DNA of 64,000 nt from Nothopassalora personata. Its lineage: Eukaryota; Ascomycota; Dothideomycetes; Mycosphaerellales; Mycosphaerellaceae. The position numbers and the translations under genes are program-made. Position 1 is the first letter of the stretch; each line of letters starts with the position of its first letter. Below the pieces are notes generated by a model, which had not been told where the DNA came from, did not search any database, and worked only from the letters and a program-made list of their open reading frames with translations. The stretch spans positions 1,550,001 through 1,614,000 of the forward strand of contig CM066295.1 of NCBI GenBank assembly GCA_033816765.1, read 5' to 3'. Shown in pieces: positions 12,533 through 56,849 of this stretch.

Positions 12533-12894
12533 CTTTGTTAGACCGTTCTTTTCCGCAGACAAGCTGCGAAGGATCTGCGAAGGGCAGATCAAGTAACGCG
12601 ACAAGCGCGTTGAGTCCACAGGCCGAGTGCGACTCCAAGAAAAGTGCGACGACAAACGCACTCAAGTTAAGTCAACAAACGCACGCAGAGAAGACGTGCC
12701 CAAGTTAAAGTCAACACCCCAAGTCAACAAGCGCGACACCCCATCGCGCCCAAGGTAACGAGATGGTGCGTCAGAATGGACGCCAGTCGCTGCTGGCAAT
12801 GCGACCAGTGGTGCAACGCGAGTCGGTGCTTAACACACAGACTTAAGGTCGCGATGCGACGCAAGAGCAAGAACAAGACCGCCAGTATGAGAAG
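12533..12894 (+). other. Y2 5' leader
   Basis: No gene seen. It differs from the Y1 leader at a few sites, including TCAACAC/TTAACAC and CTCAAGG/CTTAAGG, where Y2 has TA for CA. Confidence 0.6.
12535..12543 (+). promoter_or_regulatory. Y2 self-priming primer-binding site
   Basis: TTGTTAGAC, two bases after the LTR, is the exact reverse complement of LTR positions 12494-12502. This is the Tf1/sushi-type arrangement, in which the 5' end of the mRNA primes minus-strand DNA instead of a tRNA. Confidence 0.8.
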
Positions 12895-19619: not shown

Positions 19620-19775
19620 CGGCCCATGGCCGCACAGCGAGTGAACGTGGCGAGTTACGTGACCGGGCCCGGGCCGACCCGCGTGCCTCGGCTTGTATAT
19701 TAACTTCTCGCGCCTCGCGCACCTCTTAGATAGCTTGTCTAACAACTTCGTACTACCTAAGCAGGTGCCCTTACA
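19615..19775 (+). repeat. 3' LTR of Y2
   Basis: Same 161-bp sequence as 12372-12532. Confidence 0.95.
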
Positions 19776-25586: not shown

Positions 25587-26347
25587 ATTGATTGATTATT
25601 CCATTAACGTGCTATTTGAGTCAAAGACTATGCAACACGGGTCTCGAGAACGAGACCAAAATTTGAGAGAAGGAGAAAAGCCCCGTCGTACCCCGGACGT
25701 AAAAACTCCTTAAAAGATGCGAGCAACGCTCGCTATTCGAACCGTAAATCGAATATATTGCGGCGTAGTACGCGCGTACCCGGTAGTCGTGTCTTGTCGA
25801 GAATTGCGGTTTGTCGCCTTGCCCCGGGCGAGACAAGTTTTGCGCCCGTGTCTCGTTCTTGTTTTAAAAGCCAAGCCGGCCGTACCCGTACGCACCGAGC
25901 AAAATCCCAAGAAACACCCGTTGCCTCTGTTTCAATCCAGTCGCGTTCTCCGGTCTCGAGTGTAGCTCCTCGGTCGCAGTGGCCTCGCTGTCGTCCCCCC
26001 CTCGGCCTCTCTTGGTTCCAGCCGTGCAGTATACGTGGTTTGCGCCCCTAAACGCCTCTCTTGGTTCCAGCCGGCAGTTTACGTGGTTTGCCGGGACGAC
26101 AGGTAGACAGCGCCTTCGTTGTTCGAGCGACGTGTACGCTATGTACGTCGCTTTCCCTTCTCGCAGTTCCGGAGTTCTTGTTTGTAGATTTTGAGCGTAT
26201 CTCGTTCGTTCGGTTCGTCCGACCTGTCTTTTCTTGTTTCGAGTCGAGTAGGCTTGTATTTTTCGAGAGAGAGAGTCTTAGTTTCTCTTCGTCGTAACGA
26301 AGATACTTACGTCGTCCGCCGCGTGAAGGCGCTCTCTATAGGACGAC
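25587..26347 (-). mobile_element. SINE-like retroposon, copy 1 (761 bp), minus strand
   Basis: Flanked by a 13-bp direct repeat AAGGCAGTCCGCT (25574-25586 and 26348-26360). A long, variable-size duplication is typical of target-primed (LINE-type) insertion and unlike the 5-bp duplications of the LTR elements. In sense it starts GTCGTCCTATAGAGAGCG and ends in a simple AATCAATC tail (plus strand ATTGATTGATTATT). The second copy at 43528-44299 starts at the same base, so both look full length. It is not RIP-mutated. An internal near-duplicate of about 37 bp (around 26005-26040 and 26053-26090) starts CTCTCTTGGTTCCAGCCG. Open frames of 65-97 codons are not conserved between the copies, so I read it as non-coding. 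Confidence 0.75.
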
Positions 26348-26717: not shown

Positions 26718-27046
26718 TGTTACGGTTTGATTCGTGGAGAACCCACAACCACTCGTTAGGCAAACGAGAGCAAGGAAACCTATGGGACGAGATCGCTCTC
26801 TGAGCTCTAGGGTGATCTCTGAGGGAGCAGAGAGAGCAGGACAGATCAACTGATCGGACTGATCAAGTCGCGCCAAGACATGGCACTATATAGACGACGC
26901 TCTTTTGCAAGTAGATAGGAGCTTCGTGCTCAACTCATTTCAAGTATACACCATATACTGTTTGGAACCACTACCTTCTCAACGAGTCAGAGACATCACT
27001 GCAAAGATCCAAGCCCAGTTGGGATAACGTACAGCGGTTCCTAACA
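26718..27046 (+). repeat. 5' LTR of TR-GAG
   Basis: 329 bp. It contains TATATA at 26887-26892 and, 39 bp on, the self-primer GTGCTCAA (26926-26933). Confidence 0.95.
26887..26892 (+). promoter_or_regulatory. TATA box of the TR-GAG LTR
   Basis: TATATA 39 bp upstream of the self-primer segment. The spacing is almost the same as in the unrelated Y LTR (41 bp). Confidence 0.6.
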
Positions 27047-27049
27047 ACT

Positions 27050-27057
27050 TTGAGCAC
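27050..27057 (+). promoter_or_regulatory. TR-GAG self-priming primer-binding site
   Basis: TTGAGCAC, three bases after the 5' LTR, is the reverse complement of LTR positions 26926-26933 (8 of 8). Confidence 0.65.
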
Positions 27058-27078
27058 CACCACCAGGGCCCTTTGCAT

Positions 27079-28071
27079 ATGTCTGGGAGAGACGCTACCC
27101 GGAGTCCGTCACGACAACAGCCACAGTCAACTGGCATCACGGAACGAATGAGCGAAATGTCGATTACAGGAAGCAGCAAGAACAACAACACTCCTATGGG
27201 TATGCTGAACCCATTGGACCACCACCGTGCACCTAAGGTGTCTACGCCGGAGACGTTCGACGGGACCAAGGACAAACTGGAGGCTTTTCAACTGCAGGTT
27301 CAGTTGTACCTTCACTTCAACGCACACCAGTTTCAAGGCGAGGCTTCTAAAGTCTTGTACGCCGCATCCTTCCTACGAGGAAAAGCAGCTAGAGGATTCC
27401 GACCATACCTCAAGGACTGGCTACACAACCAGGGCGAGGGAGAAACACCGAAAACGGAAACTCGAAAAATTTTCCACGACTACGACGAGTTTGAGACGAA
27501 ACTCGATGATCTATACGGGATACCAAATGAGGAGGTATACGCCGACCGACATATCCGACAACTTCGACAGACTACTTCTGTAGCGCTGTACGCCTCAGAA
27601 TTCCAAGGATATGCCGCCGACCTGGAATGGAACGACGCAGCTTTGCGATCGCAGTTCTACCTCGGGCTGAAAGACAACGTCAAAGCCGAACTATCCCGAA
27701 ACGCCAGCGTCGTTACGCTAGGGGCGATGATCAAGGCAGCAAAGGAGATCGACGAAAGGCTCCAGGATTTGAGGTACGACCGATTCGTACAGCCTGGATA
27801 CCAGAGACCCGCCGCGGGCGGAAGAGGGGGCTTCAAGGCCAGAAGTCAGGACCCTAATGGTTACGGAGACCCAATGGAATTGGACGTAACGGAACGTAGG
27901 ACAGGAAGGGGGCTGAAGAGCAAAGGTTCCACCTGCTACGTATGTGGCGAGCAAGGCCATTATGCAAGGAACTGCAAGAAAAAGAACATAGTTAGCCGCG
28001 AGTTCAACGCAATGATTCGCGAAGAGAATACATACCAGGAATGCGAGAACTTCTTCTCGAAATCTGCCTAG
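27079..28071 (+). CDS. gag: Gag of TR-GAG
   Basis: About 330 codons from ATG at 27079 (MSGRDATRS) to TAG. It carries a Ty3-type Gag domain (T-P-E-T-F-D-G near residue 56, F-L-R-G-K-A-A near 96, then R-Q-L-R-Q-T-T-S-V-A-L-Y) and a single classical zinc knuckle C-Y-V-C-G-E-Q-G-H-Y-A-R-N-C near the C-terminus. It would form the particle and bind element RNA. It is homologous to the D2 Gag at about 47560-48390: both have F-L-R-G-R/K-A, and both zinc knuckles are followed by K-N-I-V. The frame is intact. No pol follows; 28072-28183 is a short spacer before the convergent antisense gene. Confidence 0.92.
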   Translation: MSGRDATRSPSRQQPQSTGITERMSEMSITGSSKNNNTPMGMLNPLDHHRAPKVSTPETFDGTKDKLEAFQLQVQLYLHFNAHQFQGEASKVLYAASFLRGKAARGFRPYLKDWLHNQGEGETPKTETRKIFHDYDEFETKLDDLYGIPNEEVYADRHIRQLRQTTSVALYASEFQGYAADLEWNDAALRSQFYLGLKDNVKAELSRNASVVTLGAMIKAAKEIDERLQDLRYDRFVQPGYQRPAAGGRGGFKARSQDPNGYGDPMELDVTERRTGRGLKSKGSTCYVCGEQGHYARNCKKKNIVSREFNAMIREENTYQECENFFSKSA

Positions 28072-28183
28072 CAGAAACAACCTGAGGACAGCAAGGCATC
28101 AAACAGCGGCTTCTTGATTTGATGACCTAAGGAAAAGAAGTCAACACAACGACACGGAACAAATGACTACTGGGTAACACGAC

Positions 28184-28801
28184 TTACGAAGATTGAGATG
28201 CCAAGACGGGAGGAAAGAGAAAATCCAAGGGATCGTCCAGCGGGACGTCCGACAGAGAACTCCAGTCTTGAGGAGGCATCTCGAGAATGCCATGGAAAGG
28301 GAAAGGAGGTTCAGGGACCTCTACACCGGACGGAACAGAGAAGGGGAGATCGACAGGAGGGTCGTCCAGCTCGAGTTCGTCGAGGGCCTTCCCGGTCGCA
28401 TCATCGGTACGACGCTCAGCAAGACGAAGCTGTTTCCGTACACGAACTTTCTTCATGCGCTTCTCAGTAAGACGCTGGAGAAGCTCAATCTCCTCCTCTT
28501 CTAAGGATTCCAAGTCGCGACGAAGCTGTTCCCGGACGGAGCGAAGTTTTTCCCATTGGGGGAAGGCCAGAGAAACGTCGCAAGTCTTGCGGTTGTGTCT
28601 AACGCACTCGGAGCACTTCGAGGACCTCGGACCAACGATGCAGGCAGGACGACTGCCATCAGCCAAAGGTTTCAGGGAACGACAATAGGAGCAGGGAGCC
28701 ATTTCGTAACCGTTCTCTTCAATATCTTCGACAAGGCGCTTGCGACGAAGGGTTGATTTTGCTTGAGAAGGACCAATGGTGATAGATGAAAGAGAAGTCA
28801 T
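28184..28801 (-). CDS. Antisense gene of TR-GAG: six-cysteine zinc-cluster-like protein
   Basis: 205 aa on the strand opposite to gag, from ATG at 28801. Only about 77 bp separate this ATG from the 3' LTR, so the promoter must lie in or at the LTR read backwards. Residues about 36-75 carry Cys spaced C-X2-C-X13-C-X8-C-X2-C-X7-C (C-S-Y-C ... K-C-S-E-C-V-R-H-N-R-K-T-C), close to Zn(II)2Cys6 (C-X2-C-X6-C-X5-12-C-X2-C-X6-8-C) apart from one longer loop. A charged coiled coil follows (about 80-125), then an acidic, Pro-rich C-terminus. It is homologous in order and position to the antisense gene of D1 (50065-50622). Role unknown; DNA binding is a family-based guess. It is tail-to-tail with gag. 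Confidence 0.8.
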   Translation of the reverse strand: MTSLSSITIGPSQAKSTLRRKRLVEDIEENGYEMAPCSYCRSLKPLADGSRPACIVGPRSSKCSECVRHNRKTCDVSLAFPQWEKLRSVREQLRRDLESLEEEEIELLQRLTEKRMKKVRVRKQLRLAERRTDDATGKALDELELDDPPVDLPFSVPSGVEVPEPPFPFHGILEMPPQDWSSLSDVPLDDPLDFLFPPVLASQSS

Positions 28802-28855
28802 CGTTGCATGACAGGATTGACGAAGAAAACGCCGGACCCTATAAGCTTCGGGACG

Positions 28856-28878
28856 AAGCTAGGCTAGAAGGGGGATGG
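28856..28878 (+). promoter_or_regulatory. TR-GAG polypurine tract, shared with D1
   Basis: AAGCTAGGCTAGAAGGGGGA followed by TGG abuts the 3' LTR. The reverse complement of D1 49974-49996 is the same at 22 of 23 bases. Confidence 0.75.
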
Positions 28879-29207
28879 TGTTACGGTTTGATTCGTGGAG
28901 AACCCACAACCACTCGTTAGGCAAACGAGAGCAAGGAAACCTATGGGACGAGATCGCTCTCTGAGCTCTAGGGTGATCTCTGAGGGAGCAGAGAGAGCAG
29001 GACAGATCAACTGATCGGACTGATCAAGTCGCGCCAAGACATGGCACTATATAGACGACGCTCTTTTGCAAGTAGATAGGAGCTTCGTGCTCAACTCATT
29101 TCAAGTATACACCATATACTGTTTGGAACCACTACCTTCTCAACGAGTCAGAGACATCACTGCAAAGATCCAAGCCCAGTTGGGATAACGTACAGCGGTT
29201 CCTAACA
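28879..29207 (+). repeat. 3' LTR of TR-GAG
   Basis: Identical by eye to 26718-27046. Confidence 0.95.
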
Positions 29208-30763
29208 CTCCACTTCGTTACGAATCCCGGTATTACCGCTAATACCCTATGTGAGCGCGCGCTTAAGGTCTAAGACTAGCTCTTTAAAGGTAAGAGTTTT
29301 TTAGCTATTAAGGTAAAGAATGGGTCGTGGTTTCGCCCTAATAAGCGTAGTTAGAAGACTGTTAACCCGCTTAGCTACCTCCGCGTTCGAGGTAAAGTCG
29401 GTACTACGAGTAGTATCGTTACGTATACTAACTATAACTAGATCCTCGACAAATTTAGCATCGATAAAGCTAACTAAGCCGATCTTAATAGCACCGGTAC
29501 CTACATTAATAGTAACATGCTATACTAGTACAATAACGCTAAACTAGCGCCGCGGGTTAAAATAGTTAGGGAGATAATAAGTCGAGAATTCGACGTATAC
29601 CGATAGCACCTACGAGAATTGAATAAGGTTAGTAACGGCGGCGTCTACTAGAACATATAGTATTCTCTAAGCTAATAGATTATACGATAAGACCCCGGGC
29701 TATAGCTCTTATAAGTAGCTCTATACCCTTAACACTGTACTCGGTTTATCTCCTTCCCTAGGCCTACGATTTTTAGCTTTAATAGGGCTTATTAGGGGGG
29801 TAACGCGAACACTATAGTATAGCATGCTAGGGTCGACTTAAACCTCGAAATTGAAAACTACTAAACTAGTAACCGGCTTAACATGCTATACTCTCTTAAC
29901 TTAGAGGGCACTAGTAGGCCGGAGTTTTTACACGGTTTTTATAAGTAAGGGAATACTAGAGAGTTCATCTAGTAGTGCCGGATTAACGACTACATAGAAG
30001 ACGGCCGATTTAAGCGTTTCTTCTCGGTTAGGGTCTAGAATTACCTAAGTAAGAACAGCATTAGCTAGTTTAGAGAGGACCTAAGCGCTAGGTAAATGCG
30101 GGTAACTACTATAGGCGTTCTAATAAGGTAGGCCGTACATAAGAAGACGCTACGCTAGATTAACCCTTACTTTATCGAGATCCGCGACGATGACTATCTT
30201 AAACTCTAGAGAAGCTAGAGCATACACTAGGTGATAGACCTCCATCGTAACTTTAAGACGCTAAGTAAGAGCGCTACGGGGTTTAAGTATCGACGCCTAG
30301 TACCCGGCTATCCTTTTCCTACGGCCGTACACCTTAGTAGCATTAGCCCTCTATCCGATGCCCTAGCGGGTTTAAAGTCTTAGAACGACAACGAAGTTAT
30401 CCTTAATGCTAGAAGGTAGCTTAATGCTGCGGTCCGCCTAGACTCGGAGCTCTTCTATAAGAAGATGTATAATTAGCGCGTCCGAGCTATGAAATTAATA
30501 GATAAGTAGCTTAGCTTAGTTACTACTCTTGAGTAGATGTGCTTTATAAGCGAAGGGCGTAATAAGAGCTTCTTCCGTAACTACTATAGGAACTTCACTA
30601 GCTAGCTACTTAGGGACGCGTCTAGTGAGACTAGTGTTAGCTACGACAACGAGTGGGTCTAGATAAAGGAGTTGTATAAGAATAAGTGGAACTAAGTGGT
30701 TAGTGCGGGTCTATAAGCTCCTAGTTTCTAGTTGATTTCCGGCTACAGCTATAGCCTATAGGA

Positions 30764-30899
30764 TTCTAGTTCTAATTCTAGTTCTAATTCTAGTTCTAAT
30801 TCTAGTTCTAATTCTAGTTCTAATTCTAGTTCTAATTCTAGTTCTAATTCTAGTTCTAATCCTAGTTCTAATCCTAGTTCTAATGCTAGTTCTAATGCT
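30764..30899 (+). repeat. 12-bp tandem repeat (TTCTAGTTCTAA), about 11 units
   Basis: Direct tandem units at the C-terminal end of frame G. In the G frame they read Ser-Ser-Ser-Asn, passing into Pro-Ser-Ser-Asn and Ala-Ser-Ser-Asn units at the end. A pre-RIP unit with CCA (CCAGTTCCAATT-like) would explain the CTA steps. It has no spacers, so it is not CRISPR. Confidence 0.85.
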
Positions 30900-30926
30900 T
30901 CGGGTACAGGTGCTTCTAGTCCTTAG

Positions 30927-34362: not shown

Positions 34363-34558
34363 TGTTAAGGGATGTCGTAATGTATAGCACGCCTACGACC
34401 TACTAGTCGTAGATAAACTAATTCTTACCTTTTGTTTAAGACGCATCGCGCGTCGTAAGGTGTACGCATGCGTGTTACGTGCGGCTTAGTAGCCGGTCGC
34501 GACCGCATATTACATATAAGGCTATATATAAGGGTTAGCTACTAGGCTGCCCCTTACA
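34363..34558 (-). repeat. 3' LTR of C1
   Basis: 196 bp, TGTTAAGGG...CCCCTTACA on the plus strand. Confidence 0.92.
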
Positions 34559-34859
34559 ATTACCTCCCCTCCCGTACGAGCTATCCTTAGCTCGCTAGTT
34601 GCTATGTAGAGGTTCCTACGTACTTCTAGAACTATAGTTGCTATACGGCCTATATACGGGTTACGTACGTATCGTTATGTAGGTGTAGGTAAGTAAGGCT
34701 TAGTTACTATGCCGACGTAGCTAGTTAGGGGTATAAAACTCTAGCCTAACCTAGCCCTATTCTCCTAGTACGTTCCCTAGCGTACTACCTCCGTTATACT
34801 ACTACTACGTACCCGTACCGCACCCTTACCGTAAGCGCCTCGCTAGTATTATTATTATT

Positions 34860-35798
34860 ATGTCTAACGGGCCCTCCTCGCCTCCGTCCTCTAGCCGCTC
34901 CGCCTCCTCCCGTAGTATTAGTAGCGATAGTACTACTAGTACCTTAGAAGACGAGCGCCGCTAGGCGGCTCTAGTACGCGACGTACCTAGAACGCCTAGT
35001 GGTCGTAAGCGACTAGCATCCCCCTCGTAGCTACTAACGCCCTCGCCCGCTACTAAGCTCTCGTAGAGGATTAATATATATATACGGTACCTCCTATACT
35101 TCGTTAAGGGTAAGTCTCTACGCGCGCCGCCTACAATTCGTATACTAACTACTTACTAGACGAAGCCGATGACTGTAATAGTGTTACTACCGGCGAGCTC
35201 CTAAAGAAGTACGGCCGCTATAGGCGTAATAGATATAAGTACGAGCCTAACACTAGCTACGCTATCGCCTCGCTAGTAAGCCGCCTACGCGCCGCGCGCT
35301 CCTAGCGCGACTTCCTTACGGCTATAATAGGCTAGGCGCCTATAGACCTCTAGTAGTAGGAGCTAGTAGAGTAGATCCGCCTATATACCTAGCTAGGTAA
35401 CGACATTACGGAGGTAAGTCGCTACTTCGCTCCTACGAGTCGACTACTACTCGCTGGGGGGGGGCTCTAGTACGTCTCCTATGCTTCGGCTAACCCTTTC
35501 TATAGGCTATTAGGTAGTTTAATGCCTATAAGCATAAGTGTACCGGGGAGACCCGTATACGTGCCCCCGCCGCCGCTACTACTACCGCTGCCCCCGCCGC
35601 CGTAGCGCTCGCGCTCTAGTAGGAGTAGAACCGCGCCCTTAATAGGCTATTCGAACTCGGCCGCGCCGTAAGTCGTATATTCCTCGTATACGTATACCCT
35701 ACTAACCGTAGTCCTAGTTTCTATAGGCGTAGAACATTAATACTACCGCTACCGACTAGGCATTCCTACCTAAGTTACTACGCGACGACGACAACTAA
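34860..35798 (+). pseudogene. Antisense gene of C1: four exons, zinc-cluster-like protein
   Basis: Exons 34860-35109, 35160-35413, 35506-35667 and 35712-35798 (753 nt, 250 aa plus stop). Intron 1 is GTAAGT...TACTAAC...TAG (50 bp). Intron 2 is GTAAGT...GCTAAC...TAG (92 bp). Intron 3 is GTAAGT...TACTAAC...TAG (44 bp). Only splicing joins the frames. Order: Ser-rich N-terminus (MSNGPSSPPSS), six-cysteine region split by intron 1, helical middle, Ala-rich stretch, acidic end L-L-R-D-D-D-N. Taking RIP-type Tyr back to Cys, the spacing is C-X2-C-X8-C-X11-C-X2-C-X6-C. The C1 and C2 copies support this: C1 has TAC/TAT in the K-C-G-R-C part where C2 has TGC/TGT, and C1 has TGT at the third Cys where C2 has TAT. 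TAG/TAA at Gln positions make it dead now. Confidence 0.72.
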
Positions 35799-38700
35799 GG
35801 CGCTCGCCTTACACGCTACTCGCGGGCTCCTCGCCTACTACTACTCTACGTAGCCCCTAGTAGGCGCGCTACTCTTTAGCTTTTATTTTATTTATAGTTA
35901 AGAAAAGTTTTATTTATGCTCTAGTACTCCTATACTAGTCTCATTTACTTCTCCTTAACGCCTTATAGTCGGCTACTATGCGATCCGCATTCGCGAGGCC
36001 CTCCGCCGGTTCCTAGCTATTATACTCCTCTAGCTAGTCCTTCTACTAGACTAGATACTATAGCTTACCCTTACGCTTACGCCTATCTAGTACTACCTCT
36101 ACCTTATACTCTACGTCCTTATTAGCTAGAGGGGGTACGGGTCTATCCTTATCGCTACCGATATACGGCTCGAGGAGAGAGATATAGAAGACGTTATAGA
36201 GCCTTAAGTCGGCTAGTAGCGCTAGGCGGTACGCCTACGAACCGATAGCGTCCGTAATACGGTATAGGCTAATAAACTTCGGACCTATCTTCTTCTTTAG
36301 CACTACTAACTTAAGGTTCTTCGTTAATAATAGGACTAAGTTACCTACGCGGTAGGTCTTAGCTTAGTAGGTCTTATTATAGTAGCGAGCCTAGCTTTCT
36401 CCTATAGCCTTCTATCGCTCCTCGAGTATAGCGCGTAGTTTTCGCATACGACTCGTAGCTATTACCGCTACTAGTACTTCCCCCCCTAGGTCTCGTCTCG
36501 AGATCTAGTTAGTGTAGGGGTAATCTTAGGTCGCTAACCGTACGCTATCTCGAACGGACTTATCCGTAGTGTTAGGTAGATACTATTATTAGCTACGAAT
36601 TTAGTAACTGCAAGCTACTTAGCCTACTTAGTTTAATTATTACTATAGTAATAACGAAGATATTATTCGAGGGTTTAGTTTACCCTCTTAGTTTAGCCGT
36701 TAGTCTAAGGGTAAAAGGCCGTAGATAGCTTACGCTTTACACGCGCCTCGAAGTAGAAGTTACTCTAAAACTGACTAGTGAAGACCGGACCTCGGTCGCT
36801 TACTATGCCTAACGGGACACTATAGTGTCGTACGACTTCGTCTAGTAGGAGCCTCGTAAGCTCTACGGCTATATAAGTCTTCGTTATTAGGATGTATAAG
36901 CTTATTTTTAAGTAGCGATCGACTATTACTAGGATCGCATTATACACGCAACCGGCTCGCGTACTTAGAGGTAGGTCCGTAATAAAATCTATAGTGATTT
37001 CCTACTACGGCCGCTCCGGTCTAGGAAGCGGTTATAGCCTACTATAGGGTCGATAGCGTTTAGCCTTCGAACCCTAGTAGGTTCTATAGGCTTAGACGTA
37101 TTACTTTACGTCCGTGCTAAGTAAGTCCTACTAATAATTACGTCGTAATAGCTCTTTAGTCTTAGTCCTTCTAAAGTAACCCGCGAGGACGTCGTCGTAG
37201 TATATACGAATTAGATACGACCTAATTGCGTAATCCCTAGGTACTACGATCGCGTCTCCGTAGTACATAAGGTTATCCTTTATATACTATCCCTTAGCGT
37301 CCCTCGCGCTTAGCGCCTACGCTAAGTATACGACATACTAGTCGTCTTACTACTACGCGATCTTTATTAAGAGTAGGATTAACTTACCCGTCGAGCTATA
37401 AGCTTAACCCTATATTACTATAGCGCACACTACTACTAGTAACGACGGCTTATCTTCATAGGGAAGGTTACCTCTCCGCACTGCTATTACCGCGCCTATG
37501 TCGCCCTATATCGCCTCGTAGGTAGTAAGCGCGCGCTTTACCGTCGGCTCGCTTATCCCTTCTAGAGACTCCTTCTAGAAAGATAGCTTACTTTATAAGG
37601 TAGGTAGTAAGTTCGAAGTTTATTACGTTATAGCTACGTAGTTACTACGTCTCGAAGGCGCGTCGGCTAGGTTAGTCTTACCCGGCCGATACTCTATTAT
37701 AAAATTAAAAGACTATAGGAACGTAGCCTATCGAGCTTACCGCTCATTTAGCTACTTTACTATTATAAAGCCCTATAGGTTAGCGTAGTCGACTAGTACT
37801 CGTACCGTATACGTAGCGCCCTCTAAGTATAGCCTCTAATGCTTAAAAGCCTTAACTACTATAAGCAGCTCCTAATCGTGCGTCTCGTAGTTACACTCGG
37901 CTAGTATTATCTTACGTAAATAGAACGCGATAGGATACTACTTAGTACTAAACAATTAGGATATAATACCTACGATCGCGAAACCTAACGCGTCGGTTTT
38001 GACTCGCGTACGTAGCGTAGGATCGAAGTGCCTAAGTATTAGTGCACCTAAGAATCCGGCCTTAAGCTATCGAAACGCCTACTCTTCGCTTAAGGTCTAC
38101 GTAAGAGGGCCCTACTTCTTGCCGTCCTTAGATTTCTTTAGTAGGTCCGTTAGGGGCTTATAGACCCTTAAGTATCCTTCTACAAAACGCCGGTAGAAGT
38201 TATAAAACCTAAGGAAGGACTAGACCTTATAAAAGGTCGTAGGTGTAGGCTATTCCTCGATAGCGGCTACCCTACTCCTATCTATCGACATGCCTACGGC
38301 GCTTACGATAAACCTAAGGAACTCTATACTCTCCTAGAAGAAGTAACACTTCTTAGGGTTTACGAATAGAGTAAACTTCCGTAGCCTCGTAAGCACTTCG
38401 CGTACGGCTCGTACGTGTACCTTACGCGTCTCGCTATAGATAAGGATATTATCTAGGTAGACTACGTAAATGTTATTAACTAAGCCGGTTAGCGCCTTAT
38501 TAATATACCCTTAAAAGGTTACTAGTACGTTAGTTAACCCGAACGGCATTACTAGGTACTCGTAGTATCCGTATCGCGTACGAAACGTAGTCTTCCACTT
38601 ATCGCCTCGCTTAATAGGGATACGATAGTAGGCGTCCTTTAAATCGATTATAGTAAAGAACCTAGAACCTAATAGCCTATCTAGCGTCTCGCTAATTAGG

Positions 38701-40766: not shown

Positions 40767-40962
40767 TGTTAAGGGATGTCGTAATGTATAGCACGCCCAC
40801 GACCTACTAGTCGTAGATAAACTAATTCTTACCTTTTATTTAAGACGTATCGCGCGTCGTAAGGTGTACGTATGCGTGTTACGTACGGCTTAGTAGCCGG
40901 TCGCGACCGTATGTTACATATAAGGCTACATGTAAGGGTTAGCTACTAGGCTGCCCCTTATA
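40767..40962 (-). repeat. 5' LTR of C1
   Basis: 196 bp, ending TTATA (RIP-mutated TTACA). Confidence 0.92.
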
Positions 40963-43385: not shown

Positions 43386-44942
43386 TATCGGTAGGGCGCA
43401 ACCGCGCGCGCCTACTAGGCCTATAATACTAATCGTAAGCATTGTAAGGACATGTATGTACTACGCGGACCCCGAAGGAAAATTATCGCTAACCGCGCGT
43501 TTTGGGCCGGAGCTCGCCTACGCCGCCGTCGTCCTATAGAGAGCGCCTTCACGCGGCGGACGACGTAAGTATCTTCGTTACGACGAAGAGAAACTAAGAC
43601 TCTCTCTCTCGAAAAATACAAGCCTACTCGACTCGAAACAAGAAAAGACAGGTCGGACGAACCGAACGAACGAGATACGCTCAAAATCTACAAACAAGAA
43701 CTCCGGAACTGCGAGAAGGGAAAGCGACGTACATAGCGTACACGTCGCTCGAACAACGAAGGCGCTGTCTACCTGTCGTCCCGGCAAACCACGTAAACTG
43801 CCGGCTGGAACCAAGAGAGGCGTTTAGGGGCGCAAACCACGTATACTGCACGGCTGGAACCAAGAGAGGCCGAGGGGGGGACGACAGCGAGGCCACTGCG
43901 ACCGAGGAGCTACACTCGAGACCGGAGAACGCGACTGGATTGAAACAGAGGCAACGGGTGTTTCTTGGGATTTTGCTCGGTGCGTACGGGTACGGCCGGC
44001 TTGGCTTTTTAAAACAAGAACGAGACACGGGCGCAAAACTTGTCTCGCCCGGGGCAAGGCGACAAACCGCAATTCTCGACAAGACACGACTACCGGGTAC
44101 GCGCGTACTACGCCGCAATATATTCGATTTACGGTTCGAATAGCGAGCGTTGCTCGCATCTTTTAAGGAGTTTTTACGTCCGGGGTACGACGGGGCTTTT
44201 CTCCTTCTCTCAAATTTTGGTCTCGTTCTCGAGACCCGTGTTGCATAGTCTTTGACTCAAATAGCACGTTAATGGAATAATCAATCAATAATCAATCAAT
44301 CGCCTACGCCGCCTATACTAAGTAGACCCGCGCTACTAACTAGAACCGCGCGTAAGTATCCTCCCTAGCGTCCTCCGCGACTTTTCTACCGGCTTACGGT
44401 CTTTTAGCGACGACGCCCGTACTAAGCTCCGCGCCGTCCTTAAAGCCTAGAAGGCTTTAAAGCCTCTCTAGTATACTAGCGTACTCTCCCGGTAAGTTTC
44501 CCCGGCCCCCGCCTCTTTATACGCGCTTACCGATCTTTTTAGTACGGTCGCCGCTAAGGTTATAGGTACTATAGCTAATGCCTAGCTTACCTTTAAGTAG
44601 ACGTATATACTACGGGCCCTATTATAAAACTATCGCTAACTAACTCTTTAGTCCCGGGGGCGCCCTACGCGACCTCTAGCTAGGCTAGCGCCGCGTACGT
44701 TAGGCCTCGGCCTCCTCTAACTAGCCTTCGGGCACCCTCGTCTTTCGCGCGGGCCGCGACCGGGCTATTATAGTATGTAGCTATCTTAAAAGGGATCGGG
44801 CTCCGCTACTTTTACGGCGGACGCCGCTAAAATAAAACGCTCTTAAACTTACCTATACCTTCTTACTTCTCTCTATCTCCTAAAAAGACTCCCTAACCTA
44901 AAAGAACGCCTACCTTTTCCTAAACGCCGGTATCTACGCTAA
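43386..44942 (+). pseudogene. Antisense gene of E1 (partial model), zinc-cluster-like
   Basis: With the SINE-like insertion (and one 14-bp duplication copy) removed, one plus-strand frame runs 43386-43527 plus 44314-44942, ending TAA at 44940-44942. Most internal stops are TAG/TAA that suit former Gln/Trp. Near the start, Tyr/Cys codons at 43386, 43413, 43422 and 43443 give C-X8-C-X2-C-X6-C after undoing RIP, the same as the last four Cys of the D1 antisense protein. The first two Cys would lie in an upstream exon not located. It is tail-to-tail with the E1 chromodomain. The start codon is not identified. Confidence 0.45.
43528..44299 (+). mobile_element. SINE-like retroposon, copy 2 (772 bp), plus strand
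   Basis: Flanked by the 14-bp duplication TCGCCTACGCCGCC (43514-43527 and 44300-44313). Starts GTCGTCCTATAGAGAGCG and ends in a longer AATAATCAATCAAT tail than copy 1. The body is nearly identical to copy 1, one visible difference being an extra A near 44010. It is not RIP-mutated although it sits in a RIP-mutated host. A GGTTCGAAT string at 44133-44141 resembles a B box but lies far from the 5' end. Confidence 0.75.
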
Positions 44943-48640: not shown

Positions 48641-49572
48641 ATTGCCTCCCCTCCCGTGCGAGCTATCCTTAGCTCGCTAGTTACTACGTAGAGGTTCCTA
48701 CGTACTTCTAGAACTATAGTTACTATGCGGCCTATATACGGGTTACGTACGTGTCGTTATGTAGGTATAGGTAAGTAAGGCTTAGTTACTATACCGACGT
48801 AGCTAGTTAGGGGTATGAAACTCTAGCCTAACCTAGCCCTATTCTCCTAGTACGTTCCCTAGCGTACTACCTCCGTTATACTACTACTACGTACCCGTAC
48901 CGCACCCTTACCGTAAGCGCCTCGCTAGCATTATTATTATTATGTCTAACGGGCCCTCCTCGCCTCCGTCCTCTAGCCGCTCCGCCTCCTCCCGTAGTAT
49001 TAGTAGCGATAGTACTACTAGCACCTTAGAAGACGAGCGCCGCTAGGCGGCTCTAGTACGCGACGCACCTAGAACGCCTAGTAGTCGTAAGCAACTAGCA
49101 TCCCCCTCGTAGCTACTAACGCCCTCGCCCGCTACTAAGCTCTCGCTAAGGATTAATATATATATACGGTACCTCCTATACTTCGTTAAGGGTAAGTCTC
49201 TACGCGCGCCGCCTACGATTCGTATACTAACCACTTACTAGACGAAGCCGATAACTATAATAGTGTTACTACCGGCGAGCTCCTAAAGAAGTGCGGCCGC
49301 TGTAGGCGTAATAGACATAAGTGCGAGCCTAACACTAGCTATGCTATCGCCTCGCTAGTAAGCCGCCTACGCGCCGCGCGCTCCTAGCGCGACTTCCTTA
49401 CGGCTATAATAGGCTAGGCGCCTATAGACCTCTAGTAGTAGGAGCTAGTAGAGTAGATCCGCCTATGTGCCTAGCTAGGTAACGACATTACGGAGGTAAG
49501 TCGCTACTTCGCTCCTACGAGTCGACTACTACTCGCGGGGGGGGGCTCTAGTGCGTCTCCTATGCTTCGGCT

Positions 49573-49973
49573 TATTATTGTCTCGTTCTAGGGCTAGTCT
49601 TAAAAGAGAGATAAGTTAAGTCACGTAGCGGTATTATTCTTTAGAGAGGCTAAAGCAAGCTAAGCGAAGATAAATAATAGGAATAAGAGTTGTATTCCAA
49701 TTAGTAAGATAGTAATATAAGTTGAACGCATTAGAACCATAAGGGTTTCTAGCGTTCCTAAATACAAAGGAGATTCGCGGCGCTAAGCCTATAGCTTAGT
49801 ATAATCACCTTAATCAGTCCTACTAAGCATACTGATTACACTAATTAGTCCGTGAAGTGATCAGTGTCACGTGATCAGTGTCACGTGCGTCTAGATAATT
49901 AGTATTACGTGTTTCTAAGTGATTAGTATTTCGTATGTCTAGTCGGGGCTGCCGTTTAGACCGAACCGTAACA
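49573..49973 (-). repeat. 3' LTR of D1
   Basis: 401 bp. It keeps CA at sites such as GATCAGTGTCACGTGATCAG (49859-49878), where the other LTR reads GATTAGTATTACGTGATTAG, so RIP is visible between the two LTRs of one element. Confidence 0.92.
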
Positions 49974-50064
49974 CTATCCCCCTTCTAGCCTAGCTTAGTC
50001 CCTTAAGCTTACTTATAACGAACGGTATTCTCTATGTATTCGCGTATGGCTTCTTCCCTTTGCG

Positions 50065-50622
50065 ATGCCTATCTACTAACGCCCTTCTAGCACTATCCGT
50101 CGCCGCCGTCTCTACGAGTTCGTTAAATCCGCGGGAGAAGTTATAGTTAAGAAATGCTTAACGTATAAAAAGCATAGTCGCGTGTGCAAGGTGTACATTC
50201 GTTCCGGGAAGTGTAGTAAGTGTCTTCGTCGCGGCTAAAGGTGCGATGTAAGAGTAACTTAGTCGGAGTTTAAGAGGTTAGTAGAGGAGAAGGCTCGTCT
50301 TCGTTAGAAAATCTAGGAGTCTCGGTCCGCTTAGGAGGAGGCGATGGGGGTTTATAAGAAGGCTCTCGAGGACCTAAAGATTGCTCGCGCGCGCGAGGAG
50401 CGCTTACGTTAGTAGATGGATCTAGTAGATCGTCGTGCCGAGGAGGCGATTTCCATTAAGGAAAGGGAGATCGAGGAGTAAGAGATAGAAGAGGCTTCTT
50501 TACTTCCTTCGGATATCCCTTATGAGGGTCTAGCTCTCAACTTGTCACTAGGCACATAGGGTGCTATTAAGGGTCTCGGTAACGAGTTCTAGGAGGTACC
50601 CGAACTACTCCCTACTAGTTAA
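50065..50622 (+). pseudogene. Antisense gene of D1: Zn(II)2Cys6-type protein
   Basis: One plus-strand frame from ATG at 50065 to TAA at 50620-50622, about 185 codons, opposite to pol. After a basic R-R-R-R-L-Y-E-F segment comes K-C-L-T-Y-K-K-H-S-R-V-C ... G-K-C-S-K-C-L-R-R-G-x-R-C-D-V. With the one TAT read as a former TGT, the spacing is C-X2-C-X6-C-X8-C-X2-C-X6-C, a textbook Zn(II)2Cys6 pattern. A long charged coiled coil follows (about 50260-50490), then an acidic tail. Internal stops are TAA/TAG at Gln/Trp positions. It is homologous to the TR-GAG antisense protein (28184-28801) in order and position, and tail-to-tail with the pol chromodomain. Confidence 0.72.
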
Positions 50623-50639
50623 CTTATAGGTCTTTGTTT

Positions 50640-53620
50640 TTCTTATAATATTCTCGGATCTTTTATTAATAGTTTTGTAGGTTCTTTTCTAGTTCCCAGG
50701 TATTTTCTAATTCGTCGTATCCTTTCTATTTAACAAGGTATCGCTAACCTTTCTTGTCTAGGATTCTTTCGACTTCAAATTCGTTTTCTGCTTCCGGTTC
50801 AAAATAGAAGCTCTCCTAGCAGGGTGTTTCGGCGTCTGCGGGTTCTAACTTAGAGATATAGAAGACTAGGTGGATTCTTACGTCTAGTAGTAGTCGTAGG
50901 CGGTAGTTAACTAGTTCTATAACTTTGTCGATAAAAAATAGTCCGACCTTAACGTAATCCAGTTTCTTAGTCTGTCTTCTTGTTCTCAAGTTTTTTATAA
51001 GGAGATAGACCTTATCCCCCTCTTTTAGTAGAGGTGCCATTTTTCTCGTATCCTGCCGTTATTAAGATAGTTTGTGTTATGCATCTTCGATCGCCTTGCG
51101 TGTTTCTTTATACACTTCCTTAAGAGTATCCGTCGTTACGATTGCTCTTTCGGCTTATAGGTAGGATCTAGGTGTTCTAAATAGGTTAGGATCTTTACTA
51201 AAGTTCGCATAAAATGGTGTCGTTGAAGTTGTCTCTAATTTGTGGTTGTTTAGTGCAATCTGCGCCATTAGCAGTAATGAGACCTAGTTGTCTTATGCAT
51301 AATTAATGTAGTGTCGTAGGTATTGTTCTAGCGTTTAATTTATCCTTTCGGTTTGTCCGTCTATTTCCGGATGATATGCTGTTAATAGCTTATGTTTAAT
51401 TCCGATCGTTCCTATAAGCGTCTTCTAGTAGTTTAATGTAAATAGCTTATCTCTATCCGTTATAAACGCTTAAGGGAATCCGTAGTATCGGATAAGTCTA
51501 TCTAGTACGAGGTATCCGAGCTACTCTACATTGTACGTTTCTAATGTAGGAATGAAGTGTGCGTATTTCGTAAGTCTATTAACTATAACTAGTATTATGT
51601 CGTATAGTTGTTTCGTAACTTAATCTCTTAACGGTAGGAGTTTCGTAATAAAGTCTATTATGACTTCGTCCCATAGTTTCGTCGGTAGTGTCCTAAACTA
51701 TAGGTGACCGTATTTTGCATGTCTCGTAGCCTTGTTTCGTTAGCAGTGTACGTATTGTTTAATGTAGCGTAATACCTTAAGTCTCATTTATAGGAATGAG
51801 AAGCTGCGCTGTATTAGGTCCATTGTTTTTAAAGTTCTAGGGTGTCTATAAGTTAGTCCGTCGTAATGTTATCGTATGCATTCTTCTTCTCGATCCTTAG
51901 GTACTTAGTATTTTCCTTACGATATAGGGAATTGTTCGTCCCTATCGCCTAATATCCGTACGATGTTATTGAATTCTCTTATGTTAGCACTAAGACTTCC
52001 GTCGGGGTTCGTCTTTAATATCTTATGTTACACTGGTTCTTTTTCTTCTATATAGTCGCTTCTTCGGCTTAGCGCGTCGGCGCGGCTATTCTCTCGTCCT
52101 AGAGTATATTTAATTTCGAACTTATACTGTCCTAGTAGCTCCGACTAGCAGGCTTGCCTTCGGGTAAGTTCTTTCGTCGTCGTAAAGTACGTAAGATTCT
52201 TATAGTTAGAAAGAATCGTTAACTTTGGTAGGCCCTCGACATATATTCTCTAATGTTGCATAGTAGTAACAATGGCTAGAAGCTCTTTGTTATAGATGTC
52301 GTAGTTCTGTTCCGCTATAGTCATTTTCCGGGAGTAATAGGCTACTAGGTGTCTCTATCTATCGTGTGTCTACGTTAGACACGCGCCTATTGCTATATTA
52401 GACGCATCGGTCTCGATATAGACTTCCTTACTACTATCGAATAATCGAAACGTAGGGGCTAAAGCGCATTGTTCCTTAAGTTTCTTAAATGCTTTAGTCT
52501 ATTCCTTTCCCCATTTCTAAGTGACGTCCTTTCTTATAAGCATCGTTATTAGTACTGCTATTTTCGCGTAGTCCTTAATGAATTTCCGGTTATAGTTCGC
52601 TAGTCTAAGGAATGATTGTACGTCCTTAACTGTTTTTAGTTCTAGCTACTCTCTAATTAACTATGTCTTCGCAGGGTCGATCGTTATCCCTATAGTGCTA
52701 ATAATAAAGCCTAAGAATTTAACTTCTTTCTTATGGAATTCGCATTTCTCGGGTGCCGTCTTGAATCCTAATTGCGTAAGTCGTTCGAAGACGTCCTAGA
52801 CTTGTTTTATGTGTTCCTGTAGGGATCCTTTTATATAGACTAGTATGTCGTCCATGTAGGCGATAACGCATACGTCGAGTAGGTCTCTAAGTGTTTCGTT
52901 TACAAGGTCCTAGTAGGATGCGGGTGCGTTAGTTAATCCCATTAGTATAACTAAGAATTCGTAGAGTCCGTATCTTATTCTAAAAGCGGTTTTCTATTCT
53001 TCTCCTTCTACTATTCGTATAGTATAGAAGGCATCTCGTAGGTCAATCTTCGTATACTAGTCCAATCCGGTTAATCTGTCTTATGCTTCTTCGATGTTAG
53101 GTAGCGGGTATCGGTTCTTAATCGTAATCTCGTTTAACTTCCTATAGTCCTATACGAGTCGTAACTTCCCGTTTGCTTTTAGAACGAACATGTATAGAGT
53201 TCCTACACTTAAGGTGGATCTTCTTATCTATCCTTTAGCTAGCTTCTCCTTTAGCTATTCTCGTAGGGTCTATAGCTCTTTCTTAGACATTTAATATAGG
53301 GGTCCCTATAGAGGCTCTTTCCCTAGCTAAATGTTAATCTTATAATCCCATAGGCGGTGCTTAGGTAAGGCGGTTTTACCTCTCTCCTCTTTAAAGAGTC
53401 GCGACTACTTGCGATACTCCTTAGGAATACTTAACTCTAAGATGTTAGTATTCTTCGATAGTACGTTACTTCTATCACTTCTAGTAACTTCGTAACCCGG
53501 CGGCCCTACGCTAGTGTCTATCCCGGTCGAAGGTAGTTCTTCTATCCTTCTATTTGGCGTAAGCTATATCTCGTTTAGCTGTTTCCTTGCCTTATCTACT
53601 AGTGAACGCTACTACTACGT
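50640..53620 (-). pseudogene. pol: D1 pol: RT, RNase H, integrase, chromodomain
   Basis: Minus strand. RT near 52840-53230 (M-F-V-L-K-A-N-G-K-L-R, K-N-R-Y-P-L-P, intact Y-M-D-D at 52847-52858), RNase H near 52180-52470, integrase near 51380-51960, open GPY/F-like piece 50816-51040 (G-D-K-V-Y-L-L...K-L-D-Y), chromodomain near 50660-50790 (F-E-V-E-R-I-L-D-K-K-G...Y-L-V-K-x-K-G-Y). Fewer stops than in C or E. Confidence 0.8.
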
Positions 53621-53623
53621 AGG

Positions 53624-53941
53624 CTAAATGTCGACAACGCAATCGCATTCCCTAAATGTGAGTACTCCTCTTCTCCAGTCGATTACTGGATTGTGCTTTC
53701 TCAACCAAGGCATACCTAATACTATGTCATGACTGGCCATATCAGTGACATCCAAGGTAATATTCTCGTGGTGCTGTTGGATAGCCAGTGGCAATGGTAT
53801 CGTCTCCCATTCCACGCTAGGTAACGATGATCCGTTTACCGCGATCAACTCGTAACCCCATTTCTTCTTTAGGGTAGCTAACCCGTTTCTTCTTGTGAAA
53901 GACTCGGAGATAAAATTCCCCGCTGCTCCTGAGTCGATCAT
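53624..53941 (-). CDS. D1 protease segment, unmutated patch
   Basis: 105 intact codons of retroviral-type aspartic protease: active site M-I-D-S-G-A-A-G-N-F, flap region, and I-V-L-G-M-P-W-L-R-K-H-N-P-V-I-D-W. CA and TG are normal between about 53634 and 54030 but depleted on both sides. The D2 counterpart (about 62990-63310) is fully RIP-mutated. It is a fragment of pol, not a stand-alone gene. It may be a gene-conversion tract from an intact copy, or a stretch RIP missed. Confidence 0.85.
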   Translation of the reverse strand: MIDSGAAGNFISESFTRRNGLATLKKKWGYELIAVNGSSLPSVEWETIPLPLAIQQHHENITLDVTDMASHDIVLGMPWLRKHNPVIDWRRGVLTFRECDCVVDI

Positions 53942-54030
53942 GACACTAGTCTTGTGTCCGTTGACGATTGCTTGTGTCTGGAAAACTGTGTTTGATGTCG
54001 ATGCGTGAGCCTGAATATTGCATAACTCCC

Positions 54031-56068
54031 TCCGGTCGCTTATTCCTAGGGAGCTAATCCTTTTCCCGAATAGTATATGGTTCGCTATGCTTCGTGCCTA
54101 GAGGCTTCGGCTAGAACCTATAGCCCGTTGCCCTATGTCTACACTTATAGTCTATTGCGTTCCTAGATCTTCTACGTTTCTAAGTAGAGTGCGCGTGCGT
54201 GTTGCACTATGTTACGTAATTTATTCGATACGAATGTTCCTAACGGTATAAGATATCCGGTTCCTGTTATTCGGCTTCCTATCGGTAGTCGTTCTATAAC
54301 GGTAGTTGCTAGATTCTCGGTTGTTTCCATAAGTGGGTATCCCTAGGCTATGCCTCGTAGGGTGTCGAGTGTCTTATTAAACTTAATAGAATGTAGCTTC
54401 CTTCGTCCACCTATCTTAGGTAGGAATTCCTCGTGCCTTCTTTATAGGTAGATAATTATGTCGTACAGTTTCTTAGGTACATCTACCGTAAAGGTAAGTT
54501 GTTCGTTATCGTCGTTAGTGTCGCTCTCTTCTCCTTCGGAGGAATCTTCTTCGCTTAATTCTTCCGGATCCTGTTCTTCCTCGATAGTATCTAGCCCGGT
54601 AGTTTCTTAACTTTCTTCCTGTGGTTCTAGTAACTATGATCCGTTCTATCCTAGGTCCTAATTTTCTTTATCGCTTCTATCTTCGTTAAAGTAGGATTTA
54701 TCGATGTCTACTTCTCGGAGCGTAGCGTCTTGCCTATGCGTCGCTCCTAGGGTTCCTCGTGGTTGCTAAGGCTAATACCCTACGCCTAACTTCGCGGCGT
54801 AGTGGATTTGACACGAGTCTTAGTAATAGAATCGCTAATGAAGGCTTCTATAACCATTTTGAGACTCGGATTCGGTCTCGTAGTCAACTCTTCGTGTTAT
54901 TATATTGAACTATCGTAGTTAGTTCTTCGCATTAAATAGAATGACTACTATTTGCTACCTATAGTATCCTTCTCGTCCTTCTAAGGGGTCTAGGAGAGGC
55001 GTCGTGCTTCTATTATTAGCTCTCTCCTCTACTCTCCGAGTATAGTCGGTATCTCCTCGAGATCTAACGCTACTCTTAGATTTACTAGTTCGGGGTTACA
55101 TTATATTGAATTGCTCGCGGCGCACTATATTTTTACCGCGGTAATCTCGCGCTATGTAGCCTTCCTTACTATAGGCATAACATATAAGTTTTCCTTTTCC
55201 TTTAAAGGGCTTTCCGTGGCCCCTACTCTTGTCGATCTTCCGTCCTCGTTAGGTAACGTCTAGTTCTATTAGCTATAGTCTATAGTAGGGCTAGCTTTGT
55301 CGTAAGAATTCTCCCTTCGCAACGTATCCTCCTAAGGGTCTACGGTCCGGAGCGTATCCTACTATTCCTCCTACTTTAGAGTCGTATCTCTTCTCCTAGT
55401 GTCGTTCCTAGAGCTAGTTATCGATATTGATCGACGCCTTTATTAGCTCTTCGAGGTTAGTAATCCGTCCCCCGTGTCTCATTAACTCGTCCTTAACGGA
55501 GTCTTTAAGTCTACGTCGGAACATAGTTATTAACGCCGTCTAGTCCTATCCGGTAATTTGTCCGTATTCTTCGAATTTAGCTGCATACTCTAAAGTAGAC
55601 GTCTTCTGCTTTAGGTGTTAAATGATTCGTATAGCCTATTGGACTTCGTTCGAGGTTCTAAAGATTAATTTCATCTTATCTTTAAGGAGAGTGTAGCTCC
55701 TAAACATTCTAGTGGGGTCCAATCGTCCTATACCTTTAAGGTATTCCTTAAGGTAAGGTTTAATCTAGTTCTGCGTACTTCCGCGAAGGTACGTAATAGC
55801 GAAGATAGTTCTTTTATCGGTATCGACTAGGTTAAACATAAGATACATATCTATCTAATTGATCTAGTTGTTGAACTTAGCCCTGTCTCTATAGAAGAGG
55901 TCTAGCTTAGTAGCCTTAACGTCGTTCCTCCTTAGAGTAGGCTCGTTATCGTTATTAGACTCATCGTCCTTCGTAGTGGTCTATTGTAGTAGCGTACGGC
56001 GGATGCTTCCTACTTCGCTGGGGGCGGGTGTTCCCCTACTAGCTGCTTAAGTAGCGCTTATCCTAAGG
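54031..56068 (-). pseudogene. gag: D1 gag and gag-protease linker, RIP-mutated
   Basis: Minus strand, counterpart of D2 47440-48390 plus 61961-62990. An unbroken version of the C2 insertion site is at 55002-55006. No long open frame remains. Confidence 0.6.
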
Positions 56069-56076
56069 GCGTTTAA
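56069..56076 (-). promoter_or_regulatory. D1 self-priming primer-binding site
   Basis: In sense TTAAACGC, two bases after the 5' LTR. The LTR at 56228-56235 reads TTGAACGC on the plus strand, so the match is 7 of 8, or 8 of 8 if the A is a RIP product of G (TG to TA). A TATTTA lies about 37 bp upstream of the LTR segment in sense. Confidence 0.45.
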
Positions 56077-56078
56077 AG

Positions 56079-56479
56079 TGTTATTATCTCGTTCTAGGGC
56101 TAGTCTCAAAAGAGAGATAAGTCAAGTTACGTGGCGGTATTATTCTTTAGAGAGGCTAAAGTAAGCTAAGCGAAGATGAATAATAGGAATAAGAGTTGTA
56201 TTCCAATTAGTGAGATAGTAACATAAGTTGAACGCATTAGAACCATAAGGGTTTCTAGCGTTCCTAAATACAAAGGAGATTTGCGGCGCTAAGCCTATAG
56301 CTTAGTATAATCACCTTAATTAGTCCTACTAAGCATACTAATCACACTAATCAGTCCGTGAAGTGATTAGTATTACGTGATTAGTGTTACGTGCGTCTAG
56401 ATAATCAGTATTACGTGTTTCTAAGTAATTAGTGTTTCGTGTGTCTAGTCGGGGCTGCCGTTTAGACCGAACCGTAACA
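56079..56479 (-). repeat. 5' LTR of D1
   Basis: 401 bp, TGTTATTATCTCG...CCGTAACA on the plus strand. Confidence 0.92.
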
Positions 56480-56849
56480 CGGCTAACCCTTTCTATAGGC
56501 TATTAGGCAGTTCAATACCTATAAGCATAAGCGTGCCGGGGAGACCCGTATACGTACCCCCGCCGCCGCTACTACTGCCGCCGCCCCCGCCGCCGTAGCC
56601 CTCGCGCTCTAGTAGGAGTAGAACCGCGCCCTTAATAGGCTATTCAAACTCGGCCGCGCCGTAAGTCGTATGTTCCTTATATACGTGTACCCTACTAACC
56701 GTAGTCCTAGTTCCTATAGGCGTAGAACATTAATACTACCGCCGCCGACTAGGTATTCCTACCTAAGTTACTACGCGACGACGACAACTGAGGCGCTCGT
56801 CTTATACGCTACTCGCGGGCTCCTCGCCTACTACTACTCTACGTAGCCC

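What the first reader, a model, noticed from the sequence alone, without database searches (positions are those of the whole stretch)
34860..35798. Spliced four-exon antisense gene inside a chromovirus, preserved in two copies
On the strand opposite to pol, between pol and the 3' LTR of C1, four exons of 250, 254, 162 and 87 nt join into one frame only through three canonical introns (GTAAGT, CTAAC branch, TAG). C2 (48942-56791) has the same exon lengths and splice sites. Introns on the antisense strand cannot be removed from the sense genomic RNA, so they survive retrotransposition; their presence is evidence that this strand is, or was, expressed. The protein carries a six-cysteine cluster like Zn(II)2Cys6, suggesting an element-encoded DNA-binding regulator.
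Basis: partly seen in the sequence, partly recalled or inferred. Interest (0 to 1): 0.92.

Follow-up and report, generated by a model that had tools for sequence, protein, structure and literature searches.

The report
Spliced antisense gene in fungal retrotransposon
A family of fungal jumping genes carries, on its opposite strand, an extra protein-coding gene with three introns; the genome still holds undamaged copies of it, and several related jumping genes there carry a cysteine-rich gene in the same place, which suggests these elements bring along a regulator of their own.

Summary
C1 has an antisense four-exon gene between pol and the 3' LTR. All 19 C copies that could be mapped (of 20) keep its layout. 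A sister family (D) keeps the intron positions and phases. A third family (E) has 24 scored exon-2 copies without a stop; one, L034, reads 245 codons across all three introns with no change made. E against D gives dN/dS about 0.2 (dS saturated), with most differences at third codon positions. Exon 4 is 72 nt, not 87. The six cysteines are real, but their spacing (x2, x11, x11, x2, x6) is not that of Zn(II)2Cys6 and Pfam finds no match.

Of seven other chromovirus loci sampled, six carry an antisense cysteine-cluster ORF; two of these six have an in-frame stop. That family has 204 relatives at E<=0.01, two of them named Zn(2)-C6 by UniRef. The window also holds a young element (26719-29207) that has no pol but keeps gag and such an antisense gene. 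An antisense gene at this position is a known kind (plant aORFs; brtn in Botrytis). Best reading: an element-encoded regulator. That the gene is real is about 0.95 likely; its function is inferred.

The parts
34860..35109 (+). exon 1 of the antisense gene (250 nt, starts ATG)
   Evidence: same length in L033 and L034
35110..35159 (+). intron 1 (GTAAGT...CTAAC...TAG, 50 nt, phase 1); the one intron whose removal is indispensable
35160..35413 (+). exon 2 (254 nt in C, D and E): four of the six clustered cysteine positions, then a predicted-helical stretch
35414..35505 (+). intron 2 (length varies 89-95 among 19 C copies); site of the nested insertion in C2
35506..35667 (+). exon 3 (162 nt; 165 in L034, 171 in D)
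35668..35726 (+). intron 3 (59 nt in C, D and L034; deleted with flanking exon sequence in L033 and L035)
34732..34738 (+). TATAAAA, candidate core promoter of the antisense gene, 122 nt before the ATG (CATAAAA at the matching place in L033); not tested
   Evidence: read
35944..36387 (-). C-terminal part of pol with chromodomain, convergent with the antisense gene
34363..34556 (-). 3' LTR of C1
40767..40960 (-). 5' LTR of C1 (95.4% identical to the other)
48942..49572 (+). C2 copy, first part: exon 1 to intron 2
56480..56791 (+). C2 copy, second part: rest of intron 2 to the stop (TGA), beyond the nested element
49575..56480 (.). another LTR element (400-bp LTRs, 94%) inserted in C2's intron 2
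26719..29207 (.). young LTR element without pol: identical 329-bp LTRs, target duplication CTCCA
27028..28068 (+). its open gag frame (PF03732, zinc knuckle)
28187..28801 (-). its antisense cysteine-cluster and coiled-coil ORF, 205 aa, open

Best explanation
The chromovirus families C, D and E carry an accessory gene on the strand opposite gag-pol, between pol and the 3' LTR. Shown from sequence: it has four exons and three short introns with canonical fungal signals; the intron positions and phases (1,0,0) are shared by families about 45-55% identical in protein; undamaged copies read through as one frame; the codons are under purifying selection. Inferred: it is transcribed from its own promoter just inside the 3' LTR (a TATA-like box stands there), spliced, and translated to a protein of about 245 aa that binds zinc through a six-cysteine cluster and pairs through its helical part. 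Inferred and less certain: it acts in the nucleus on the element's own transcription or integration. The antisense cysteine-cluster and coiled-coil ORFs in the same position in six of seven other chromovirus loci, and in elements that have lost pol, make a role in the element's own life cycle more likely than a passenger gene.
For: Layout kept in 19 of 19 mapped C copies (20 fetched), exons changing only by multiples of 3 while intron 2 varies freely. D: same phases, exon 2 of 254 nt. E: 24 of 150 scored exon-2 hits have no stop, 126 have 5-7 stops, all TAG (150 of 492 candidates scored); each of the 24 has a chromodomain hit on the other strand 306-539 nt away (searches compared by eye). L033 and L034 splice to open frames of 209 and 245 aa unchanged. 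The 167-nt deletion that separates L033 from L034 removes 108 exon nt plus the whole of intron 3 and keeps the spliced frame. E-D: dN/dS 0.20-0.22, differences by codon position about 65/39/94 over 162 codons, four D copies. Antisense ORFs at six of seven other loci. Pol-less element ORF against L044: differences 60/41/111 over 201 codons, dN/dS 0.16. 204 relatives of that ORF family.
Against: No RNA or protein evidence could be reached. Introns 2 and 3 are not needed for an open frame. At DNA level introns are not clearly less alike than exons between E and D (excess score per base 0.75, 0.17, 0.37 for introns, 0.34-0.78 for exons). Differences between E and eight C copies that are not of the mutation type show no clear codon-position bias. 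C-D gives a higher dN/dS, 0.38-0.47 over 18 pairs. dS is saturated in E-D. Three of six D copies have ATAAGT at donor 3. For the last three cysteine positions the five D copies show no cysteine codon. No Pfam, PDB or protein relative of the C/D/E protein; no profile similarity to the other antisense ORFs.
Confidence: 0.55

Rival explanations
1. The antisense transcript itself is what matters: it pairs with sense RNA and tunes the element through dsRNA or interference, and the protein is secondary.
For: Antisense transcripts with such roles are discussed for LTR elements (passages of PMC7264820). In two loci the antisense ORF overlaps the end of pol (116 nt in L040, 59 nt in L042).
Against: Purifying selection on codons, in-frame indels and kept cysteines point to a protein. 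Both can be true.
Confidence: 0.2
2. A host gene with introns was captured once and rides along as a passenger.
For: C/D/E protein has three introns and no relative found, whereas the antisense ORFs at the other loci have no obvious intron; introns mean it did not enter as a spliced mRNA.
Against: A passenger should decay; E-D dN/dS is about 0.2, and other chromovirus loci have a comparable gene in the same place. No host counterpart was seen, but one search scored only 150 of 492 candidates.
Confidence: 0.15
3. Chance: heavily mutated, TA-rich DNA mimics GTAAGT, CTAAC and TAG, and reading TAG through makes any frame look open.
For: CpA and TpG are depleted (0.12 and 0.22 of expectation) and TGA is rare in every frame of C1 (0-3 per frame), so 'open after undoing the mutations' alone is weak.
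Against: Undamaged E copies are open with no change; 0 of 400 shuffles; same structure in D.
Confidence: 0.02
4. The cysteine-cluster proteins are structural (packaging or nucleic-acid chaperone) and not transcriptional.
For: The pol-less element keeps just gag and this gene.
Against: Antisense expression is an odd way to make a particle component; acidic tails with aromatic residues and Zn2Cys6 spacing at other loci suit a regulator better (inference).
Confidence: 0.1

Closest known systems
brtn, antisense gene of Boty-like chromoviruses of Botrytis cinerea (Zhao et al. 2011, Virology 417:248; not held, seen only as cited in PMC8365987, PMC7264820 and PMC4227169)
   Different: Its sequence could not be compared, so homology is untested; whether it has introns or a cysteine cluster was not seen.
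aORF-3R genes of plant LTR retrotransposons (Grande gene23, RIRE2, Retand, PvRetro13; passages of PMC7264820)
   Same: Same position and strand; own promoter and nuclear protein reported for Grande gene23; function unknown.
   Different: Plant elements; no sequence relation tested.
Fungal Zn(II)2Cys6 binuclear cluster (PF00172; Gal4, LAC9, LEU3)
   Same: Six cysteines followed by a helix. The antisense ORFs at L036, L038, L039, L040 and L042 have Zn2Cys6 spacing; LEU3 and LAC9 are among 12 weak PDB matches of profile A4, over the cysteine region (E 0.62 and 0.86).
   Different: C/D/E protein: spacing x2, x11, x11, x2, x6 and no match. Others: best Zn_clus E 0.011, 9 of 69 at E<=1, and those scans seen in full were below the cut-off.
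HBZ, spliced antisense gene of HTLV-1 (recalled)
   Same: Works-like comparison: spliced antisense gene at the 3' end encoding a nuclear regulator with a helical dimer part.
   Different: bZIP, no cysteine cluster; no relation claimed.

Membership tests
Antisense accessory gene of LTR retrotransposons (aORF-3R) | coding frame between pol and 3' LTR, opposite to gag-pol | tested here: met
Antisense accessory gene of LTR retrotransposons (aORF-3R) | kept in most copies with coding conservation | tested here: met
Antisense accessory gene of LTR retrotransposons (aORF-3R) | antisense transcription | not testable with these tools
   no RNA data available
brtn | sequence homology to brtn | not tested
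   paper and sequence not held
Zn(II)2Cys6 (PF00172), C/D/E protein | C-x2-C-x6-C-x5-12-C-x2-C-x6-8-C (consensus recalled) | tested here: not met
   C-x2-C-x11-C-x11-C-x2-C-x6-C
Zn(II)2Cys6 (PF00172), C/D/E protein | Pfam match | tested here: not met
Zn(II)2Cys6 (PF00172), antisense ORFs of other loci | cysteine spacing | tested here: met
   x2,x6,x8,x2,x6 in L039, L040, L042; x2,x6,x8,x2,x7 in L038; x2,x6,x10,x2,x6 in L036 if the second of two adjacent cysteines is used; L037 and the window ORF have longer insertions
Zn(II)2Cys6 (PF00172), antisense ORFs of other loci | Pfam gathering score | tested here: not met
   no cut-off reached in the scans shown in full; best member E 0.011
Zn(II)2Cys6 (PF00172), antisense ORFs of other loci | fold match to solved structures | tested here: inconclusive
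   Foldseek none, nothing for VIA to align; model pLDDT 77.7, pTM 0.47
Chromovirus | C-terminal chromodomain in pol | tested here: met
   E: PF00385 hits beside exon 2; C1 and C2: 78% identity to that end

The most novel reading that the evidence does not exclude
Fungal chromoviruses in general carry an antisense cysteine-cluster and coiled-coil gene as a selected and exchangeable module: several loci of one genome have it, families can swap it while gag stays nearly identical, and elements that have lost pol still keep it, so the element needs it in a way that a partner supplying pol does not cover. The C/D/E gene would be an intron-bearing version of independent origin.
Probability: 0.4. Interest if true: 0.8.

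Novelty: new variant of a known kind. Interest (0 to 1): 0.62.

Why it matters
Antisense accessory genes of LTR elements have been described in plants and Botrytis with no known function (passages of PMC7264820). Here one genome holds damaged, diverged and undamaged copies side by side, a three-intron version that proves use of the antisense strand at some time in its history, and pol-less elements that keep gag and the antisense gene under strong codon constraint. That makes the long-open question of what these genes do directly testable with small intact proteins and ordinary binding and localisation assays.

Tried and rejected
Rejected: chance (and undamaged copies); exon 4 of 87 nt; Zn(II)2Cys6 membership of the C/D/E protein; homology of C/D/E to the other antisense ORFs (probability 0.6%). 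Led nowhere: protein search with C/D copies (none of 7996 scored candidates at E<=0.01) and with the intact E protein (none of 1396 at E<=1); PDB with A1; viral contigs (206 pattern matches, none confirmed); Foldseek and VIA. An early cut of the other loci at the pol stop shortened the ORFs of L039, L040 and L042; one search gives them whole, so A2, A3 and the profile used shortened ends for three rows. I also first took the wrong minus-strand frame for the pol end in L036 and L039; one search corrects it. Paper searches showed nothing on antisense cysteine-cluster genes of fungal elements beyond the citations of brtn; papers were seen as listings, plus passages only of PMC8365987, PMC7264820, PMC4227169 and PMC3248453.

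Full report
What was checked. The window is part of a 54.5-Mb genome in 40 contigs. C1 is an LTR element with 194-bp LTRs at 34363-34556 and 40767-40960. Its pol is on the minus strand: the intact pol end of a related element matches 36387-35944 at 78%.

The mutated copies. C1 is depleted of CpA and TpG (0.16 and 0.19 of expectation; an intact element in the window has 1.27 and 1.16), as after repeat-induced point mutation. The spliced frame of C1 has 16 internal stops, all TAG. TGA is rare in every frame of C1, so an open frame after undoing mutations is weak evidence alone. I made no repaired frame. Of 20 further C copies fetched, 19 could be mapped and all keep the four exons; exon lengths change only by multiples of three, intron 2 has six lengths.

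A sister family. Family D (at least 40 scored copies, 519 candidates), about 67% identical at DNA level to the C gene, has the same three introns in the same phases and exon 2 of exactly 254 nt (six copies looked at, L008D without exon 1). Donor 3 reads ATAAGT in three of six. The start of its exon 1 is not established.

Undamaged copies. An exon-2 protein search of the genome (150 of 492 candidates scored) gave 126 hits with 5-7 stops, every one TAG, and 24 hits with none. Each of the 24 lies 306-539 nt from a chromodomain hit on the opposite strand (searches compared by eye). L034 splices, without change, to 245 codons over exons of 250, 254, 165 and 69 nt. L033 lacks 167 nt, which are 108 exon nt and the whole of intron 3, and reads 209 codons. 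In L034 only intron 1 must be removed; keeping intron 2 and/or 3 leaves ORFs of 265-299 aa, so splicing of those two rests on conserved sites, on exon 3 and 4 being alike between families in the spliced frame, and on free length change in intron 2.

Selection. E against four D copies: 162 codons, dN/dS 0.20-0.22, pS about 0.68, so dS is saturated; differences about 65/39/94 at codon positions 1/2/3. C against D, both mutated: 0.38-0.47 over 18 pairs. E against eight C copies gives 0.12-0.20, but mutation type confounds this, and the remaining differences show no clear codon bias. Exons are not clearly more alike than introns at DNA level. I therefore rest the claim on the E-D codon pattern and the undamaged frames.

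The protein. E has six clustered cysteines, C-x2-C-x11-C-x11-C-x2-C-x6-C, and a seventh further on. At these places C and D copies have cysteine or tyrosine codons with single exceptions; in the five D copies a cysteine codon is seen only at the first three. No Pfam match (only weak unrelated names for E), no PDB match, no protein relative.

The same place in other chromoviruses. I took one locus from each of seven other ORF-length classes of chromodomain hits. Six of seven (L036-L040, L042) have an antisense ORF with a cysteine cluster and mostly a long predicted-helical part just past or overlapping the end of pol; L041 shows none in the stretch fetched. Whole frames from a start: L036, L037, L039, L040. 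L038 and L042 each have one in-frame stop, the frame going on beyond it. L040 and L042 overlap the pol frame tail to tail by 116 and 59 nt, L039 by 4. Spacing is that of Zn2Cys6 in five of six. A profile of this group found 204 proteins at E<=0.01 (120 listed, three with organism names: Hortaea werneckii, Elsinoe australis, Sporormia fimetaria; two named Zn(2)-C6 by UniRef). Pfam Zn_clus is reached weakly by 9 of 69. LEU3 and LAC9 appear among 12 weak PDB matches. Their genomic setting in other species could not be seen.

Elements without pol. The window holds an element at 26719-29207 with identical LTRs, a CTCCA target duplication, an open gag and an open antisense cysteine-cluster ORF, and no pol. 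Its antisense ORF has 14 copies at about 100%, 15 at 78% and 8 at 68% among 40 scored places of 60 candidates, the other 3 being short matches. L044, of the 68% group, is also gag next to antisense ORF. Gag ends of the two differ little (109 codons, dS 0.06), while their antisense ORFs are far apart (201 codons, dS about 1.8, saturated; dN/dS 0.16). So the antisense module was exchanged, or gag was, and the antisense protein stayed under constraint. L043, of the 78% group, shows the mutated form.

Reading. An antisense gene at this position is a known kind (plant aORF-3R, brtn), of unknown function according to PMC7264820 (passages). New here, so far as my nine paper searches show, are a three-intron version kept in three families, its occurrence beside a cysteine-cluster type in most other chromovirus loci sampled in the same genome, and its retention in pol-less elements. 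I think a self-regulator most likely (0.55 for the whole statement; 0.95 that the gene is real).

Noticed in passing
window 26719-29207: Young LTR element without pol: gag on plus, antisense cysteine-cluster ORF on minus, identical LTRs, 14 copies of the ORF at about 100%.
   Followed up: yes
L044 against window 26719-29207: Gag ends nearly identical but antisense ORFs saturated in dS: a swap of modules between elements.
   Followed up: partly
window 2367-9773 and 12371-19776: Two 7.4-kb copies of an LTR element in inverted orientation, 99.6% identical, 2.6 kb apart; one has a 1408-aa pol frame with SH3_Tf2-1 reaching the LTR, the other has it in two pieces (874 and 446 aa).
   Followed up: no
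window 25586-26347 and 43528-44290: 763-bp inverted pair, 99.9% identical, in a region of heavily mutated repeats.
   Followed up: no
window 30739-30923: 12-bp tandem repeat, eleven overlapping register copies reported.
   Followed up: no
L033, L035 against L034: 167-nt deletion removing intron 3 with flanking exon; the spliced frame is kept.
   Followed up: partly
L040 and L042: Antisense ORF overlaps the end of pol tail to tail by 116 and 59 nt.
   Followed up: no
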